Shown piece after piece: positions 486 to 12,592 of a stretch of DNA of 44,251 nucleotides (the first letter of the stretch is position 1; every line of letters starts with the position of its first letter). The notes beneath the pieces were generated by a model. That model had not been told where the DNA came from and searched no databases. It saw only the letters and a list, made by a program, of their open reading frames with translations. Both the position numbers and the translations under genes were made by a program. The DNA is from Chloroflexota bacterium. Lineage in GTDB: Bacteria > Chloroflexota > Dehalococcoidia > UBA2247 > JAUWOP01. The stretch covers positions 1 to 44,251 of the forward strand of contig JAUWOP010000006.1 in the NCBI GenBank assembly GCA_030612045.1, read 5' to 3'.

Positions 486-1220
486 ATGATAAATAGTGTG
501 CGTATTGATATTCTTACCTTGTTCCCAGATATGTTTGCCGGGCCATTCAATGAAAGCATCATAGGGCGTGCTGTTGAGCGTGGTCTAGTACATATCTCCA
601 TTCACAATCTCCGCGATTATACTCATGATAGGCATCATACAGTGGACGATTGCCCTTACGGTGGTGGGGTAGGAATGATACTGAAGCCAGAGCCACTATT
701 TGAGGCGGTAGAGTCTATAAAGTCGGCAGTAATCCAAAGAGGTGAAGCTACACCACGAGTTGTGCTACTTACCCCACAGGGAGGGCTTTTCTGCCAGCAT
801 ATTGCCGCAGAAATGGCAAATCTCAAGGCTCTTCTCTTAATCTGTGGCCACTATGAAGGAATAGATGAAAGGGTGCGGGAGCACCTGATTGATGACGAAA
901 TTAGCATCGGTGATTATGTACTTACTGGTGGTGAGTTGGCAGCGATGGTAGTAGTGGATGCCATAGTGCGTTTGCTCCCTGGCGTCTTAGGAGCAGATTC
1001 GGCACTAAATGAGGATTCCCATACAAACGGACTTCTGGAGTATCCTCAGTATACCCGTCCCAGGGAATATCGCGGCTGGGAGGTGCCCCCTATCTTGCTT
1101 TCGGGAAACCATGCTGAGATTGCACGATGGCGGGGAGAACAATCCTTGTCCCGCACTCGCCAACGGCGCCCTGACTTATTAGCCAGAGATTCCGATACTA
1201 AAGCGAAACGGGAAAATTAA
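486..1220 (+). CDS. trmD: tRNA (guanine-N1-)-methyltransferase TrmD
   Basis: [13 protein letters not shown]-like start, DDxPYGGGxGMxLKPEP, [23 protein letters not shown] motifs. Confidence 0.97.
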
Positions 1221-1274
1221 GTTTCGCGATTTCTGGACTTTATAATGTCATAAGAAGGTTGAGGAGGCTATATT

Positions 1275-2792
1275 GTGGGTTTAGCCCTGCAACGGTTCTT
1301 TCCTGCTAAACAGGTTGAGGCTCAAAAACATCAAACCAGGAAAAACCACAATCAGTACTTTACCCCTGAGTTTGCCGCCGAGAAGGCTCTTTCGCTTATT
1401 CCAGAGGGAAAGATAAAAAGTGTAATTGACCCTGCGGTAGGGGATGGCGCGTTTATTAAAATAGCTTCTAAAATGTGGGATAATTCAAGCTTGTTTGGGA
1501 TAGACATTGATGAAAGCATAATATTGGGATTAAAAAAATTAAATTTACCAAATTCTTTCTTCGTTTGCTCCGATAGTTTATTAAAACAAACCTGGCATTT
1601 ACCTGAAATTCAAAAGATTCTTTCAACCGGTGGTTTTGACCTTGTGGTAGGCAATCCCCCTTTTAGTAGTTGGTTTAGCAGGATAAACTCAAAGGAGATA
1701 TTATCAAATTTTAAATTAGCCTGTAAAAACGGAAATTTGGCCAGAAGTCTGGGAATTGAGATACTTTTTCTTGAAACCTTTATAAACTTAGCTAGAGAAG
1801 ATGGCTTTATTATAATTGTTCTTCCCGATGGTATCTTATCTAATCCCCAATACAAATATATCAGAGGCTTTATTTTGAGGGAAACAAAAGTCTTACAAAT
1901 AATCAATCTTCCCAGGAATGTATTTAAGGACACTTCCGCTAAAACAAGTATTCTCATTCTACAGAGACGAAAAACAGCCGGCATGAAGTACCTTAGCGAG
2001 ATAAGTGATTTAGGGAAAACAGGTGAAGTAAACAACATCATAAAAGTCAGGGGAGAAAACCTGATAAATAGAATGGATTACTTTTATTACTATAATATAC
2101 AAAGGAATTCCCTTAAAGGATTGATAGATAAGGGTATTTTATTCAGCCCACTAGCAGATTTTATCGTTTATTGTAAAACTGGAAAAACTCTTTATGGAAA
2201 AGAAAAAGGTTTTTCAGGCAAAGGCTTGAGATTTCTCCATGCAACAAATATTACAGATGTTGGAATTAGCTATAAAAAAGATGAGAGATTTATCGATCCC
2301 TTAAGTAAAATGTATTTTCCTGATGCATATGCTAAAATGGGAGACATACTTTTTGTAAGGGTCGGTGTCGGCTGTGCAGGGAAAGTGGCTATCGTTGGTG
2401 CTGAAGAGGACGAAGGAGTAGCAAGCGATTATATCTATATATTTAGGGTAAAAGATGTAAATCCATATTTCCTTACTCTTTATCTAAAGACAAGGTTTGG
2501 AAAGGATTCTATAAATCTTCTCAAGCATGGAGTCGGAACAGTAAGTATAAACAAAACAGACCTTTTATCCTTACCTATTCCACTTATCCCCGAAAGTATT
2601 CAATTGGAAATTGAAGGAAGATACAAAAGCATTCTCACCAGATATCGTAAAGACCCAGAGGGTAGAAATATTAAGGCAGATATGACTTCTTTAATTTTCT
2701 ACCTTGAAGAGAGAATTAAGAACTCAAAGGAGACTTTATGTGGAGATGTGAGATATGTAGAAAAGACTTCAGCGATAGTAGAATGGCAATAG
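1275..2792 (+). CDS. N6-adenine DNA methyltransferase with C-terminal target-recognition-like region
   Basis: NQYFTPEFAAEKAL, VIDPAVGDGAF, DLVVGNPPF motifs; C-terminal half resembles a Type I S/Type IIG TRD (GDILFVRVGVGCAGKVAIV...LLSLPIPLIP). GTG start. Confidence 0.88.
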   Translation: MGLALQRFFPAKQVEAQKHQTRKNHNQYFTPEFAAEKALSLIPEGKIKSVIDPAVGDGAFIKIASKMWDNSSLFGIDIDESIILGLKKLNLPNSFFVCSDSLLKQTWHLPEIQKILSTGGFDLVVGNPPFSSWFSRINSKEILSNFKLACKNGNLARSLGIEILFLETFINLAREDGFIIIVLPDGILSNPQYKYIRGFILRETKVLQIINLPRNVFKDTSAKTSILILQRRKTAGMKYLSEISDLGKTGEVNNIIKVRGENLINRMDYFYYYNIQRNSLKGLIDKGILFSPLADFIVYCKTGKTLYGKEKGFSGKGLRFLHATNITDVGISYKKDERFIDPLSKMYFPDAYAKMGDILFVRVGVGCAGKVAIVGAEEDEGVASDYIYIFRVKDVNPYFLTLYLKTRFGKDSINLLKHGVGTVSINKTDLLSLPIPLIPESIQLEIEGRYKSILTRYRKDPEGRNIKADMTSLIFYLEERIKNSKETLCGDVRYVEKTSAIVEWQ

Positions 2793-2963
2793 AATTAAGG
2801 TTCGGTTACATAGATGGTGCAGAAGCCAAAGGAAAGAATCAGGACAAGGGCAAATGAAGTAGAATATGAGATGTATATGGCAGGTAGAGAAGGCAACAAA
2901 AACATCTACAAGTGGCCGGCATCGGAAATTACTCTCAATAGAATCACTATCACTGGATGTTAA
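2782..2963 (+). pseudogene. possible frameshifted/truncated remnant of an ORF coupled to the methylase
   Basis: ATG at 2782 overlaps methylase stop (MAIELRFGYIDGAEAKGKNQDKGK*); another frame from 2814 continues with coding-like MVQKPKERIRTRANEVEYEMYMAGREGNKNIYKWPASEITLNRITITGC*. Confidence 0.4.
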
Positions 2964-2975
2964 ATAGTCAGGAGG

Positions 2976-3248
2976 ATGGAGATGCGAACCCACGTGATGT
3001 TCCCTGACGAATTAGTGAAGGATGTAGACAGGCTAGTGGGAAGGAGAAAAAGGAGTCGCTTCGTGACGGATGCGGTTAGAGAGAAACTAAGACGCGAGAG
3101 GCTACTCTCTGCTCTGGGGGAAACGGCAGGTATTATCTCAGCGGAGGAGTATCCTGAGTGGGCTACCACAGAGAAGGTTGCTGCCTGGGTCCGAAAATCT
3201 CGACACGAGGATATGCAACGATTGGAGAGGTTATTCAGTGATGGCTAG
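2976..3248 (+). CDS. ribbon-helix-helix VapB-like antitoxin
   Basis: RTHVMFPDELVKDVDRLVGRRKRSRFVTDAVREKLRRERL RHH-type N-terminus; overlaps downstream PIN gene. Confidence 0.8.
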   Translation: MEMRTHVMFPDELVKDVDRLVGRRKRSRFVTDAVREKLRRERLLSALGETAGIISAEEYPEWATTEKVAAWVRKSRHEDMQRLERLFSDG

Positions 3249-3627
3249 ATATTTGCTGGATACCACTGCTCTCATTGACTATTTGGCTGGACGCCAAGTG
3301 GTAGTTGAGGTAATAAAAGAGCTCGCTAAGGGGGGACACTCGCTGGGAGTTTGTGGCATCAATATTGCTGAGCTTTATTCGGGTCTCAAAGAAGAGAAAC
3401 GCCTGCAGGCCGATTACCTCATTGACAGCCTGCTTTATTATGAGATTACTCTTCAGGTGTCGAAGATGGCAGGAGGTTATCGCTTCGCCTTTGCCAGGCA
3501 AGGCAAAACACTATCAGTAGCCGACACTATAGTGGCTGCCACTGCAATAGTAAATGAAGCGATACTGATTACAGCCAATAAAAAGGATTACCCTATGGAT
3601 GAAATCAAGGTCTTGGAGCAACCTTGA
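3241..3627 (+). CDS. VapC-like PIN-domain toxin
   Basis: MARYLLDTTALIDYLAGR...; conserved acidic D/E pattern, VADTIVAATAI; ATG overlaps vapB stop (supplied ORF start 3178 is too long). Confidence 0.88.
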   Translation: MARYLLDTTALIDYLAGRQVVVEVIKELAKGGHSLGVCGINIAELYSGLKEEKRLQADYLIDSLLYYEITLQVSKMAGGYRFAFARQGKTLSVADTIVAATAIVNEAILITANKKDYPMDEIKVLEQP

Positions 3628-3691
3628 GAGGAGAAGGAGATAACATCCCAGAAGATGATAATACTTTTAAGATACCAGAAGGAGCACTACA

Positions 3692-5524
3692 ATGAATGCT
3701 ATCACTACTTTTGATAGCACCAGGGAGTCACTCCTTGATATGTTACGAAGTATTCGGAAAGGTGAAACCCAACTTCCTGACTTCCAGCGGGGATGGATAT
3801 GGGATGATGAACATATTAAGAGTTTGCTGGCAAGCGTCTCACTATCCTATCCTATTGGTACCGTGATGATGTTACAGACAGGAAGTGAGGATGTACATCT
3901 CAAACCACATCTTGTGGAAGGTGTTTTTTGGGATGATCCTCCTGAACCTGAGCGCCTTATTCTTGATGGTCAACAACGACTTACCTCGTTCTTACAGGCG
4001 ATATATGCCGATAGACCGGTAGACACCAGAGACGCGCGTGGTGCTCATATCCGGCGTTGGTACTACATAGACATCGCTCAAGCCATGAATTCTGATGGAG
4101 ATAGGGAAGAGGCAATCAAAAGTCTTCCGGAGGACCGAAGGATTATAAACTTCCGCCGTGAAGTCATAGCTGATTATTCAACTCCTGAAAAAGAGTACGA
4201 AGCCGGCTTGTTTCCTTTATCACAAGTATTTGATGATACTGAGTGGAGATGGGGATATGAGAAATTCTGGGACTATGATAAAGAGAAAGCAAAACTTTTT
4301 GGTGAATTTGAAAAGGAGCTTATTGAACGCTTTAAGCAATACCAGGTACCTCTTATCCTGATGCGAAAAGAGACCCCAAAGGAAGCCGTATGTCAGATAT
4401 TTGAGAAGGTAAATACCGGTGGAGTGTCGCTAACAGTATTTGAGTTACTTACTGCCACCTACGCTGCAGATAACTTCAGACTGCGAGATAATTGGACTGA
4501 GCGAAAGAGGCATTTTAAAGAACAGAAGGAACAGAAAGTGCTGGCTAGAGTCGAGAGTACTGATTTTCTTCAAACTATTACACTACTGACGACATATGCT
4601 AGACGGCATCAAAGCATTGCGAATGGTATAAGCATTGACAATGCACCAGGAATTAGTTGTAAAAAGAAGGAGATTCTTCGTCTTTCGCTTGATGATTATA
4701 AGACTTGGGCAGACCGGGCTGCAAAAGGATTCGAGAAGGCCGCCAGGTTTTTACATAGCCAGAAAATCTTTGCCGCCCGCGACATACCTTACCAAACTCA
4801 GCTTGTTCCGTTTGCAGCAATTCTGGCTGTTTTGGAAGACCGCGCTGATAGTGATGGTGTAAAAGCAAAACTTGCTCGTTGGTACTGGTGTGGTATTCTG
4901 GGTGAACTGTATGGCGGCGCAATCGAAACTCGGTTCGCCAAGGACTTACCTGAGGTGGTGGAGTGGGTTAGTGATGACACTGAACCTTCTACGGTTTCCG
5001 ATGCAAATTTCGTACCTGAGCGTTTACACACACTTCGAAACCGTAACAGTGCTGCCTACAAAGGACTACACGCACTTCTGCTACGAGACGGATGCCAAGA
5101 TTTCCGCACAGGCGATAATATTGATGAGCAATTATACTTTGAAGACGCAATTGATATACACCACATTTTCCCTCAACACTGGTGCGGAAACAATGGAATT
5201 GATATGAAGCTTTGTGGCTGTATTGTTAATAAAACCCCGCTCTCTGCCAAGACCAATAGGATTATCAGTGGTAACGCACCAAGTACATATTTACCGCATG
5301 TGCAAAAGAGGAGCGGCTATGACGATAATCGGATGGTGGAAATCTTGCAGTCTCATGTCATCGAGCCGAAATCCCTGCAGTCAGATGATTTTGGCTCTTT
5401 CTTCAAGTCACGTGAGAAGGCTCTGCTAGATCGTATAGAGAAAGCTATGGGTAAGCATGTTGCACGAGTAACTACATCGCAGGATTTTGATATCCCTGAA
5501 GAAGAACTAGAAGCGGAGGAGTAA
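3692..5524 (+). CDS. DUF262 + HNH (DUF1524-like) GmrSD-type protein
   Basis: LPDFQRGWIWDDEHIKSLL, LILDGQQRLTSF (DUF262), C-terminal IDIHHIFPQHW HNH motif. Confidence 0.88.
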   Translation: MNAITTFDSTRESLLDMLRSIRKGETQLPDFQRGWIWDDEHIKSLLASVSLSYPIGTVMMLQTGSEDVHLKPHLVEGVFWDDPPEPERLILDGQQRLTSFLQAIYADRPVDTRDARGAHIRRWYYIDIAQAMNSDGDREEAIKSLPEDRRIINFRREVIADYSTPEKEYEAGLFPLSQVFDDTEWRWGYEKFWDYDKEKAKLFGEFEKELIERFKQYQVPLILMRKETPKEAVCQIFEKVNTGGVSLTVFELLTATYAADNFRLRDNWTERKRHFKEQKEQKVLARVESTDFLQTITLLTTYARRHQSIANGISIDNAPGISCKKKEILRLSLDDYKTWADRAAKGFEKAARFLHSQKIFAARDIPYQTQLVPFAAILAVLEDRADSDGVKAKLARWYWCGILGELYGGAIETRFAKDLPEVVEWVSDDTEPSTVSDANFVPERLHTLRNRNSAAYKGLHALLLRDGCQDFRTGDNIDEQLYFEDAIDIHHIFPQHWCGNNGIDMKLCGCIVNKTPLSAKTNRIISGNAPSTYLPHVQKRSGYDDNRMVEILQSHVIEPKSLQSDDFGSFFKSREKALLDRIEKAMGKHVARVTTSQDFDIPEEELEAEE

Positions 5525-5525
5525 T

Positions 5526-6581
5526 TTGCAGGCAATGACTTTCCGGGATAGCGAAAAGGAGAGATATAAGGAGCTGAAGCCGAAGTTGTTCATCCCTGAA
5601 GCCCGGTGTGATGGTTATTATCGTAGACATCCATACTTCTTTTGCCTGGCCGATGACTACTCTTGTGAGAACCTTTACAAAACTATTAGAGAGTGTGCTA
5701 TCGGATATTTTGGGTGTCGACACATCCCCTGGCATGACGGCCTTGACAAGAGGCACTTGCCCAGCAATCACCTGTGTTGTTCCCAGTCATGCTGTGTAAA
5801 TTTCCTTTACCCAATGACAACTAACCCGAAGCTACTTGCTAGTGTCTTCCGGTACTTCTATCCAGAACTGGCAGAGCCGCTTCCGGTCGATAAGGATTTG
5901 CCACTAAAGGGTTCATTCCCGTATATGGCTTTTGAGTGGATTGGTGTCCGTGACTATTTGGGCGAGGCCAAACGCAAAGGAGCAGAACGAACTCGAGGAG
6001 CGTATTTCACCAGCGCTGACTTTATCTTCCGCTTCGAAAGAGAGGATGGGAAAATACAAATAGTCCTTGGAGAATGGAAATACACAGAAGACTATCGCAG
6101 ATTAGATAAGGGCATTGAAGTCAGGAAGCAGAATTATCACCTCGCATTCAATAGAGATGGCGGAGTGTTTAAACAACGTGGTGAAAACCTTTATGGCGCC
6201 TTGTTCTTTGACCCGTTCTACCAGCTCATGCGCCTTCAATTGCTCGCTCAGGAGATGGAACTCAGTCGAGAAATGGGTGCTGATGTTGTGAGTGTGCTCC
6301 ATATTTGTCCCGAGGCTAACAGGGAGTTTAGGGACAGGGTAACTTCTCCTCACTTGGCAGATATGTTTCCCGATAAAGGTGTGCTCGAAATCTGGAAAGA
6401 GTTGGTTCCCCAAGACAAGTTCATGAGCATCTCAGTTGAGGACTTGCTTAAAACTATAATAGAGCGGGTGACAGTAGATGACCAAGGGTGGGCAGATTAT
6501 CTCAGTACCCGGTACGGGTGGGACAGGCTATCCAAAAAGAGTAGCGTTGCCACTCCTGTGGTAACGAGTCATTCGTCGTGA
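5526..6581 (+). CDS. putative PD-(D/E)XK restriction endonuclease, PGN_0703-like
   Basis: SADFIFRFEREDGKIQIVLGEWKYTE (D...ExK-like) plus LCCSQSCCVNFLYPM; starts 1 bp after the DUF262 gene (TTG 5526 or ATG 5535). Confidence 0.65.
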   Translation: MQAMTFRDSEKERYKELKPKLFIPEARCDGYYRRHPYFFCLADDYSCENLYKTIRECAIGYFGCRHIPWHDGLDKRHLPSNHLCCSQSCCVNFLYPMTTNPKLLASVFRYFYPELAEPLPVDKDLPLKGSFPYMAFEWIGVRDYLGEAKRKGAERTRGAYFTSADFIFRFEREDGKIQIVLGEWKYTEDYRRLDKGIEVRKQNYHLAFNRDGGVFKQRGENLYGALFFDPFYQLMRLQLLAQEMELSREMGADVVSVLHICPEANREFRDRVTSPHLADMFPDKGVLEIWKELVPQDKFMSISVEDLLKTIIERVTVDDQGWADYLSTRYGWDRLSKKSSVATPVVTSHSS

Positions 6582-6599
6582 CAGGAGTCACGACGCTAC
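6541..6599. repeat. imperfect inverted repeat/hairpin overlapping the end of the nuclease gene
   Basis: GTAGCGTTGCCACTCCTGT ... ACAGGAGTCACGACGCTAC. Confidence 0.65.
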
Positions 6600-6673
6600 A
6601 CGAAATGAGATCTTGGGTAATCTCAGGACGAATATTCCAGAGTATTTTTTATAGAAAGGAACTTTGACCAACG

Positions 6674-7126
6674 ATGGACATGAATACAATAATCGATGTA
6701 GCGCCCAACCCTAATATCCCGCTTATCAACCCTGGGGATACGGTGAAGGTGAGTGTTAAGATAAAAGAGGGTGACCACGAGCGAATTCAGCCATTCCAAG
6801 GCATCGTAATTGGAGTCAGGAAAGGGAAGATTAATTCCAGCTTTACTGTGAGACGCTCCGCTTACGGGATAGGGGTAGAACGCACCTTCTTTTTCTACTC
6901 CCCTATGATAGAAAGTGTGGAGATAATACAAAGGGGGAAGGTACGTCGTGCCAAACTCTACTATTTGCGGGGCCTGAGTACTAAGGCAACCCGTGCTAAG
7001 ATAAAGGCTGTACCAAGGATAAAGTCAACATCTGCATCTGCAGATAGCATGGTGGAGGAGATACTTGAGCCAGAGTCTATAGCTACTGAGGTAGAAGATA
7101 TACTTGAATCAGAAGCTGAGGAGTAA
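6674..7126 (+). CDS. rplS: 50S ribosomal protein L19 with acidic C-terminal extension
   Basis: [65 protein letters not shown]. Confidence 0.96.
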
Positions 7127-10954: not shown

Positions 10955-11824
10955 ATGGATTTTGCTAACGAGATTATCCACGGTGATTGTGAGGAAATCC
11001 TAAAGCAGTTTCCAGATGATTCTATTGACCTGATTTTTACTTCACCACCATACGCAGACCAGAGACAAAGAACTTACGGTGGTGTGAAGCCTGATAATTA
11101 TGTAGATTGGTTTCTCCCCAAAGCTGCGCAATTCTTGCGTGTGCTGAAACCTACGGGAACCTTTATCCTGAATATCAAAGAGAGAGTCGTAGATGGTGAG
11201 AGGCATACTTATGTCATTGAATTGATTTTGAAGATGAGAGAAGGGCAGGGATGGTTATGGACCGAGGAGCTCATATGGCATAAAAAGAATTCGTACCCCG
11301 GCAAATGGCCCAATAGGTTTAGGGATAATTGGGAGCGATTACTTCAATTCAACAAACAAAAGAAATTCAATATGTATCAGGAAGCGGTTGTTGTTCCTGT
11401 TGGAGATTGGGCTAAAGACCGTCTAGCCAGTCTGAGCGAAACTGATAAAATAAGGGATGAGTCAAAGGTAGGGAGCGGCTTTGGCAAAAATGTCTCAAAT
11501 TGGCTTGGACGTGATAAGGTGTATCCTACTAATGTCATCCATATGGCTACCGAATGCTCAAACAAGAATCACAGTGCTACTTTCCCTGTCGATTTACCCG
11601 CTTGGTTCATCAAGCTGTTTACAAGAGAAGGCGATGTTGTTCTAGACCCTTTCGTCGGTTCTGGTACAACAGCATTAGCTGCAATTCAACTTGGCAGAAG
11701 GCACGTTGGCATTGACATCAATGAAGAATATGTCCAGTTGGCACGAAAGCGCATCACAGAAACCCAAATTCGGATGCCAATTATAGCCGAAGCTCCTGAT
11801 AAAGCGTATCCGACCGTAAGCTAA
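10955..11824 (+). CDS. DNA methyltransferase, beta-type permutation (TSPPY before DPFVGSGTT)
   Basis: LIFTSPPYADQR near N-terminus, VVLDPFVGSGTTALAAIQLGRRHVGIDI near C-terminus. Confidence 0.95.
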   Translation: MDFANEIIHGDCEEILKQFPDDSIDLIFTSPPYADQRQRTYGGVKPDNYVDWFLPKAAQFLRVLKPTGTFILNIKERVVDGERHTYVIELILKMREGQGWLWTEELIWHKKNSYPGKWPNRFRDNWERLLQFNKQKKFNMYQEAVVVPVGDWAKDRLASLSETDKIRDESKVGSGFGKNVSNWLGRDKVYPTNVIHMATECSNKNHSATFPVDLPAWFIKLFTREGDVVLDPFVGSGTTALAAIQLGRRHVGIDINEEYVQLARKRITETQIRMPIIAEAPDKAYPTVS

Positions 11825-11839
11825 AACAGAGGCAATGCA

Positions 11840-12592
11840 ATGAATCCGTTGAATTTAGACGAAGTCCGAGAGTACGTAAACGAGAACATCGTTGATTTCC
11901 ATCAGCGAAGGATAAAGTCCTTGGAAGACTTGAAACTCGAAAAGCTGTTGAAGAAGAACCCATATCTATTCAAGGCAAAGAATATAGCGACTGCTGGAGA
12001 GTTAGTGTCTGGCTTGCTGGATGCTTTCCTTTCGTCATCTGAAGAAAAACTCTTTGGTGACTTCCTTGAGGGTTTGGCTGTTTTAATAGCAAGCAAAACC
12101 TGTGATGGACATAAATCCACAGCTTCAGGAGTTGATTTGGAGTTCTTCAACAAGGGTGCGCACTACGTGGTTTCTGTCAAATCTGGAACAAACTGGGGTA
12201 ATAGTTCCCAGCAAAGGAAGTTGGAGGAAGACTTACGAAATGCCGTTATCAGAGTTAGACAATCAAAGCACGGGGCAAATGTCCAATCGGTTCTGGGCAT
12301 CTGTTACGGAAAAACGAAAACTAGCTATGTTCGGGGATACCTGAAGGTTGTTGGACAAAACTTCTGGTATCTGATTAGCGAAAACGAAGCCTTGTACACG
12401 GACATCATTGAGCCAATAGGCTACAGAGCGAGGCAACATAACGAGGTTTTTCTCAAGGAGAAAAGCCGGGTGATAAACAGATTTACAAAACTGTTCATTG
12501 ACAGGTTCTGTGATGATACAGGTGCGATAGATTGGGTAAAACTCGTTGAGTTCAATAGTGGCAACTACGATTTGGATGGGTTCTTGCCTTAA
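11840..12592 (+). CDS. PmeII-like Type II restriction endonuclease
   Basis: LKKNPYLFKAKN, GVDLEFFNKGAHYVVSVKSGTNWGNSSQ; adjacent to DNA methyltransferase. Confidence 0.85.
   Translation: MNPLNLDEVREYVNENIVDFHQRRIKSLEDLKLEKLLKKNPYLFKAKNIATAGELVSGLLDAFLSSSEEKLFGDFLEGLAVLIASKTCDGHKSTASGVDLEFFNKGAHYVVSVKSGTNWGNSSQQRKLEEDLRNAVIRVRQSKHGANVQSVLGICYGKTKTSYVRGYLKVVGQNFWYLISENEALYTDIIEPIGYRARQHNEVFLKEKSRVINRFTKLFIDRFCDDTGAIDWVKLVEFNSGNYDLDGFLP

What the first reader, a model, noticed from the sequence alone, without database searches (positions are those of the whole stretch)
3692..6581. Coupled DUF262-HNH protein and PGN_0703-like nuclease: candidate two-gene defence module
The DUF262/DUF1524-type gene (GmrSD-like, DGQQRLT and IDIHHIFPQHW) ends at 5524 and the next ORF starts at 5526 or 5535, consistent with translational coupling. 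The second protein has SADFIF...LGEWKYTE (D...ExK-like) and a Cys-rich LCCSQSCCVNF segment. Two predicted nucleases plus an upstream N6-methylase is not a standard RM layout I recognise; it could be a modification-sensing two-component nuclease.
Basis: partly seen in the sequence, partly recalled or inferred. Interest (0 to 1): 0.68.

Follow-up and report, generated by a model that had tools for sequence, protein, structure and literature searches.

The report
Neighbouring anti-phage nuclease genes in defence island
Two DNA-cutting-enzyme genes of known families sit side by side in a small defence-gene insert between two housekeeping genes of a bacterium; such neighbours recur a few times elsewhere but are usually found apart, so this looks like ordinary defence-island cargo rather than a proven new two-part system.

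Summary
The genes are real. 3692-5524 encodes a DUF262 (GmrSD_N) protein with DGQQR and an H-N-N nuclease motif; its predicted fold matches BrxU. 5535-6581 encodes a REase-ARP/PDDEXK_13 nuclease with invariant D...ExK. Both lie in a ~5.4 kb insert, with an adenine methylase and a VapBC-like pair, between trmD and rplS, which are adjacent in most same-order relatives where both were found. The 'coupled two-gene module' claim is only partly supported. Of 37 REase-ARP loci in 34 same-phylum genomes, 4 have a GmrSD_N gene next door, in three architectures, against 0.09 expected under uniform placement, a null that ignores defence-island clustering. The other 33 lack it, and close relatives of either gene do not share this partner. 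Relatives of the DUF262 gene sit alone or in type III, Hma and other defence operons; a distant one sits in a type I operon. A DUF262 gene beside an adenine methylase is thus published GmrSD/RloF context. Best reading: two restriction enzymes, probably sharing a transcript but acting independently. A dedicated two-component nuclease is not excluded (about 0.12).

The parts
486..1220 (+). trmD, left flank of the insert
   Evidence: Recognised by its protein sequence; in most same-order relatives where both genes were found it lies directly upstream of rplS
1221..6673 (+). about 5.45 kb defence-gene insert in the trmD-rplS operon
   Evidence: trmD and rplS lie roughly 30-130 bp apart in same-order relatives L163-L170; no convincing terminal repeats found
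1275..2792 (+). N6-adenine DNA methyltransferase with a C-terminal target-recognition (Methylase_S) domain; GC 35.8 %, unlike the rest of the insert
   Evidence: PF02384 1.8e-22, PF01420 6.9e-7; PADLOC MTase_II 3.7e-74; NPPF motif; GC
2976..3248 (+). small antitoxin-like protein upstream of a PIN toxin (VapB-like, inferred)
   Evidence: No Pfam hit; position and overlap with the PIN gene
3238..3627 (+). VapC-like PIN-domain toxin
   Evidence: PF01850 3.8e-10; NF047959 2.8e-9, below its cut-off
3692..5524 (+). DUF262 (GmrSD_N) plus C-terminal HNH protein, GmrSD/BrxU-like
   Evidence: PF03235 1.8e-31; profile vs BrxU 7p9k 5e-33; predicted structure pLDDT 89, Foldseek to BrxU E 1.1e-13, prob 1.00
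3965..3979 (+). DGQQR motif (residues 92-96), NTP-binding site of DUF262
   Evidence: Invariant in 20 aligned sequences
5159..5257 (+). HNH motif: HHIFP (490-494), N513, N522
   Evidence: H491, P494, N513 invariant, H490 and N522 at least 90 %; N-N spacing of 9 equals GmrD N169/N178 (PMC4619093)
5515..5537 (+). junction: GGAGGAG 5515-5521, TAA 5522-5524, TTG 5526, ATG 5535
   Evidence: Sequence read
5535..6581 (+). REase-ARP / PDDEXK_13 family predicted nuclease
   Evidence: PF22558 1.7e-36 (126.7 bits, cut-off 27), PF20796 1.6e-17 (64.2 bits, cut-off 27); model pLDDT 90.6, pTM 0.89
6018..6080 (+). catalytic core D162 ... E180-x-K182
   Evidence: Invariant in 22 aligned sequences; on predicted strands 161-169 and 174-181
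6674..7126 (+). rplS, right flank of the insert
   Evidence: Same-order relatives

Best explanation
This is a small defence island inserted between trmD and rplS. Among its cargo are two adjacent restriction enzymes of known kinds, probably on one transcript: a DUF262-HNH enzyme of the GmrSD/BrxU superfamily and a REase-ARP PD-(D/E)XK endonuclease. Shown: the gene content, the motifs, the predicted folds, and the insertion relative to same-order relatives. Inferred: the DUF262 domain binds and hydrolyses NTP and, on meeting modified foreign DNA, licenses cutting by its own HNH domain, as reported for BrxU; the REase-ARP protein cuts DNA with its own metal-dependent D/ExK site by a recognition rule not yet known. 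Most likely the two act independently and are neighbours because defence genes accumulate together, not because they form an obligate complex.
For: Families. Catalytic residues. Insertion. Independence: 33 of 37 REase-ARP loci lack an adjacent GmrSD_N gene; the six closest REase-ARP relatives inspected have a truncated hsdM, a DUF3800, a DUF433 fusion, a small ORF or nothing evident beside them; close DUF262 relatives (43-58 % identity) sit alone or beside type III RM genes, SNF2/DrmD-type helicases, HTH or PLD genes. Codon third-position GC differs within the insert: methylase 0.32, DUF262 0.40, REase 0.51, as expected for separately acquired genes. Published GmrSD context is enriched in RM genes (PMC4619093).
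Against: Adjacency is above uniform expectation: 4 pairs within 2 kb against 0.09 expected, Poisson P about 2e-6 for 4 or 1e-4 for 3 independent ones. Gene order differs between architectures yet spacing stays short (10 bp in the window, about 35-55 bp elsewhere), and in G714 both lie together between hsdS and hsdR. No nuclease, NTPase or phage-protection activity was or could be measured.
Confidence: 0.66

Rival explanations
1. Two-component system: the DUF262 protein senses DNA (perhaps modified) through its NTPase domain and recruits or activates the REase-ARP nuclease as a second cutter.
For: Short same-strand spacing in the window and in three other genomes; adjacency above uniform expectation; DUF262 genes do pair with separate nucleases in known systems such as Menshen (PMC10952713).
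Against: Most members of both families examined occur without the other; the DUF262 partner keeps its own HNH motif; the DUF262 genes in the four pairs belong to different branches (profile scores 851, 267, 49 and 36 bits), two with a canonical GmrSD_C domain.
Confidence: 0.12
2. Type II restriction-modification: the upstream adenine methylase with its own target-recognition domain protects the site that the REase-ARP enzyme cuts, and the VapBC and DUF262 genes between them are inserted extras.
For: Methylase with Methylase_S domain and a PD-(D/E)XK enzyme on one strand; some other REase-ARP genes lie near adenine methylases or HsdM_N.
Against: Three genes intervene; methylase GC is 35.8 % against 47.4 % for the nuclease; the closest methylase relative found (G208, 33 %) shows no REase-ARP neighbour; most REase-ARP loci have no methylase-motif gene nearby.
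Confidence: 0.15
3. The whole insert is a decaying remnant with no working defence function.
For: It sits inside a ribosomal-protein operon, and genes of differing composition are mixed.
Against: All ORFs are intact and the catalytic residues of the two nucleases are kept.
Confidence: 0.07

Closest known systems
BrxU / GmrSD type IV restriction enzymes (PDB 7p9k)
   Same: DUF262 domain with DGQQR, C-terminal HNH with H-N-N at matching spacing, matching predicted fold, found in defence islands beside adenine-methylase systems
   Different: Residue before the catalytic His is His (HHIFP), not Asp/Glu (DHIYP); no PF07510 hit; modification specificity unknown; low global TM-score (0.40)
RloF, R-linked DUF262 genes of type I RM operons
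   Same: DUF262 gene beside adenine-methylase RM genes; the distant relative in G714 lies between hsdS and hsdR
   Different: In the window the methylase is a single-chain type II-like enzyme and no hsdR is present
PF22558 REase-ARP / PF20796 PDDEXK_13 nucleases
   Same: Scores far above both curated cut-offs, all invariant residues present
   Different: Function of the family is not established in the sources I could search; no solved relative found
Menshen (DUF262 protein with a separate OLD nuclease)
   Same: A DUF262 gene next to a separate nuclease gene
   Different: Nuclease is of another superfamily and the DUF262 protein there lacks DUF1524 (PMC10952713)

Membership tests
GmrSD/BrxU type IV restriction enzyme | DUF262 (GmrSD_N) domain with DGQQR | tested here: met
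   PF03235 1.8e-31; DGQQR 92-96 invariant
GmrSD/BrxU type IV restriction enzyme | C-terminal HNH nuclease with catalytic His and two Asn | tested here: met
   H491, N513 invariant, N522 at least 90 %
GmrSD/BrxU type IV restriction enzyme | (E/D) before the catalytic His (DHIYP) | tested here: not met
   His490 instead; filed therefore as a DUF262-HNH protein of the superfamily, not as GmrSD proper
GmrSD/BrxU type IV restriction enzyme | PF07510 (GmrSD_C) match | tested here: not met
   No match at E 0.1, although two paired relatives match it
GmrSD/BrxU type IV restriction enzyme | Overall fold | tested here: met
   Foldseek to 7p9k E 1.1e-13, prob 1.00; but TM only 0.40, rmsd 17
GmrSD/BrxU type IV restriction enzyme | Cleavage of modified DNA | not testable with these tools
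   Needs biochemistry
REase-ARP (PF22558) / PDDEXK_13 (PF20796) | Profile match above curated cut-off | tested here: met
   126.7 and 64.2 bits against 27
REase-ARP (PF22558) / PDDEXK_13 (PF20796) | D...ExK catalytic residues | tested here: met
   D162, E180, K182 invariant
REase-ARP (PF22558) / PDDEXK_13 (PF20796) | Match to a solved PD-(D/E)XK structure | tested here: inconclusive
   No match with E <= 0.001; EcoO109I second at E 0.065
Dedicated two-gene DUF262 + REase-ARP system | Recurrent adjacency | tested here: inconclusive
   4 of 37 loci, above uniform expectation but not corrected for island clustering
Type I or III RM operon | hsdR/hsdS or res gene with the methylase | tested here: not met
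   None between trmD and rplS

The most novel reading that the evidence does not exclude
DUF262-HNH and REase-ARP proteins form a two-nuclease system, assembled more than once in different gene orders, in which the DUF262 NTPase gates cutting by both active sites.
Probability: 0.12. Interest if true: 0.5.

Novelty: new member of a known kind. Interest (0 to 1): 0.24.

Why it matters
It adds a sequence-supported GmrSD/BrxU-superfamily gene and a REase-ARP nuclease to a little-studied lineage, gives a high-confidence predicted structure for a nuclease family with no solved member found, and supplies a short list of loci (G714, G260, G676 and the window) where the pairing could be tested. If the pair did work together, it would be a DUF262 system with two different nuclease folds.

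Tried and rejected
IMG/VR scans with the REase-ARP protein and an alignment of its close relatives, and with the DUF262 protein, gave no relatives. No phage-record match for the REase and one plasmid match without a DUF262 gene among its listed neighbours. Three other REase-ARP branches gave no plasmid match. A search of the class of G011 returned only G011 itself. Literature searches for PGN_0703, REase-ARP and PDDEXK_13 found nothing in the held library, so what 'ARP' stands for was not learned. Metal-binding reading of the Cys cluster rejected for the family at large. No convincing terminal repeats at the insert ends. A relation of the REase to the window's own EcoO109I-like enzyme was not seen by profile comparison.

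Full report
The window lies in a genome of 1.62 Mb in 85 contigs. The two ORFs exist as described.

First protein. It matches GmrSD_N (PF03235, 1.8e-31). The alignment profile finds BrxU at 5e-33, and the predicted structure (mean pLDDT 89.2) finds BrxU first (E 1.1e-13) and SspE next. TM-score to BrxU is only 0.40 with rmsd 17, which may reflect domain placement; I did not superpose domains separately. DGQQR is invariant. The HNH part reads HHIFP-N513-N522; the two Asn are nine residues apart, as are N169 and N178 of GmrD (PMC4619093). The acidic residue before the catalytic His is replaced by His, and PF07510 is not matched.

Second protein. It matches PF22558 and PF20796 well above cut-off. 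In 22 aligned sequences S83, N89, E134, T159, D162, E180, K182, E185, Y201, Q230 and R233 are invariant. The model is confident (pLDDT 90.6, pTM 0.89) and puts E134, D162 and E180 on three successive predicted strands, with K182 just after the third. No solved structure matches with E <= 0.001. Among weak matches the restriction enzymes EcoO109I and BstEII rank second, third, fifth and seventh.

Setting. In most of the same-order relatives in which both genes were found, rplS follows trmD within roughly 30-130 bp, mostly with priA next. In the window about 5.45 kb separates them, holding a methylase with a target-recognition domain, a VapBC-like pair, the DUF262 gene and the REase. Relatives in which rplS or priA was not seen on the short loci are not counted either way. 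GC differs between cargo genes.

Pairing. I gathered REase-ARP loci in the same phylum with one protein search and two family searches and GmrSD_N hits in the 34 genomes concerned. Of 37 loci, four have the two domains within 2 kb: the window, G714, G260 and G676. In G714 the order is DUF262 then REase, inside a type I operon between hsdS and hsdR, after a DUF3800 gene. In G260 and G676 the order is REase then GmrSD_N+C, with gaps of about 35-45 bp; these two share a family and I count them as one architecture. Uniform placement predicts 0.09 such pairs. That null is too generous to the module idea because defence genes cluster; I had no island-aware null. Several loci lie near contig ends, so some pairs could be missed.

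Reverse view. None of the relatives of the DUF262 gene from its own search and from plasmids whose neighbourhoods I read showed a REase-ARP match beside it. In G106 two copies, at 58 % identity, sit after a DrmD-like helicase and before type III methylase and restriction genes; in G219 a relative precedes an HmaB-like methylase; in Shinella one lies beside a ResIII protein and a type III-like methylase. The same protein class therefore sits with many partners.

Conclusion. Observation confirmed; nuclease calls supported; a dedicated module is possible but unproven. Everything about activity is inference from families.

Noticed in passing
window 10955-12592: A second RM pair: an amino-methyltransferase (PF01555) directly upstream of an EcoO109I-type restriction enzyme (PF14511, 2.1e-70), located between priA and a glycyl-tRNA-synthetase-like gene. 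From memory, M.EcoO109I is a C5 methylase, so the methylase class may differ; not checked here.
   Followed up: partly
L102, L103, L104 (G162, G473, G410): REase-ARP gene starting at or within about 13 bp of the end of the gene before it; the complete upstream genes in L102 and L103 read like uvrB, the one in L104 is cut by the contig end. Possibly a housekeeping association.
   Followed up: no
L115 1811-3148 (G330): REase-ARP protein in one ORF with an N-terminal DUF433 domain; fusion or read-through not decided.
   Followed up: partly
L126 3049-3948 and L008 7675-8433: DUF3800 genes near REase-ARP genes in two different genomes.
   Followed up: no
G106, loci L048 and L049: Two similarly arranged helicase-DUF262-type III RM gene clusters in one genome.
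   Followed up: partly
window 1275-2792: The methylase gene has 35.8 % GC against about 47.5 % for the 14112-44251 stretch, suggesting a separate origin.
   Followed up: no
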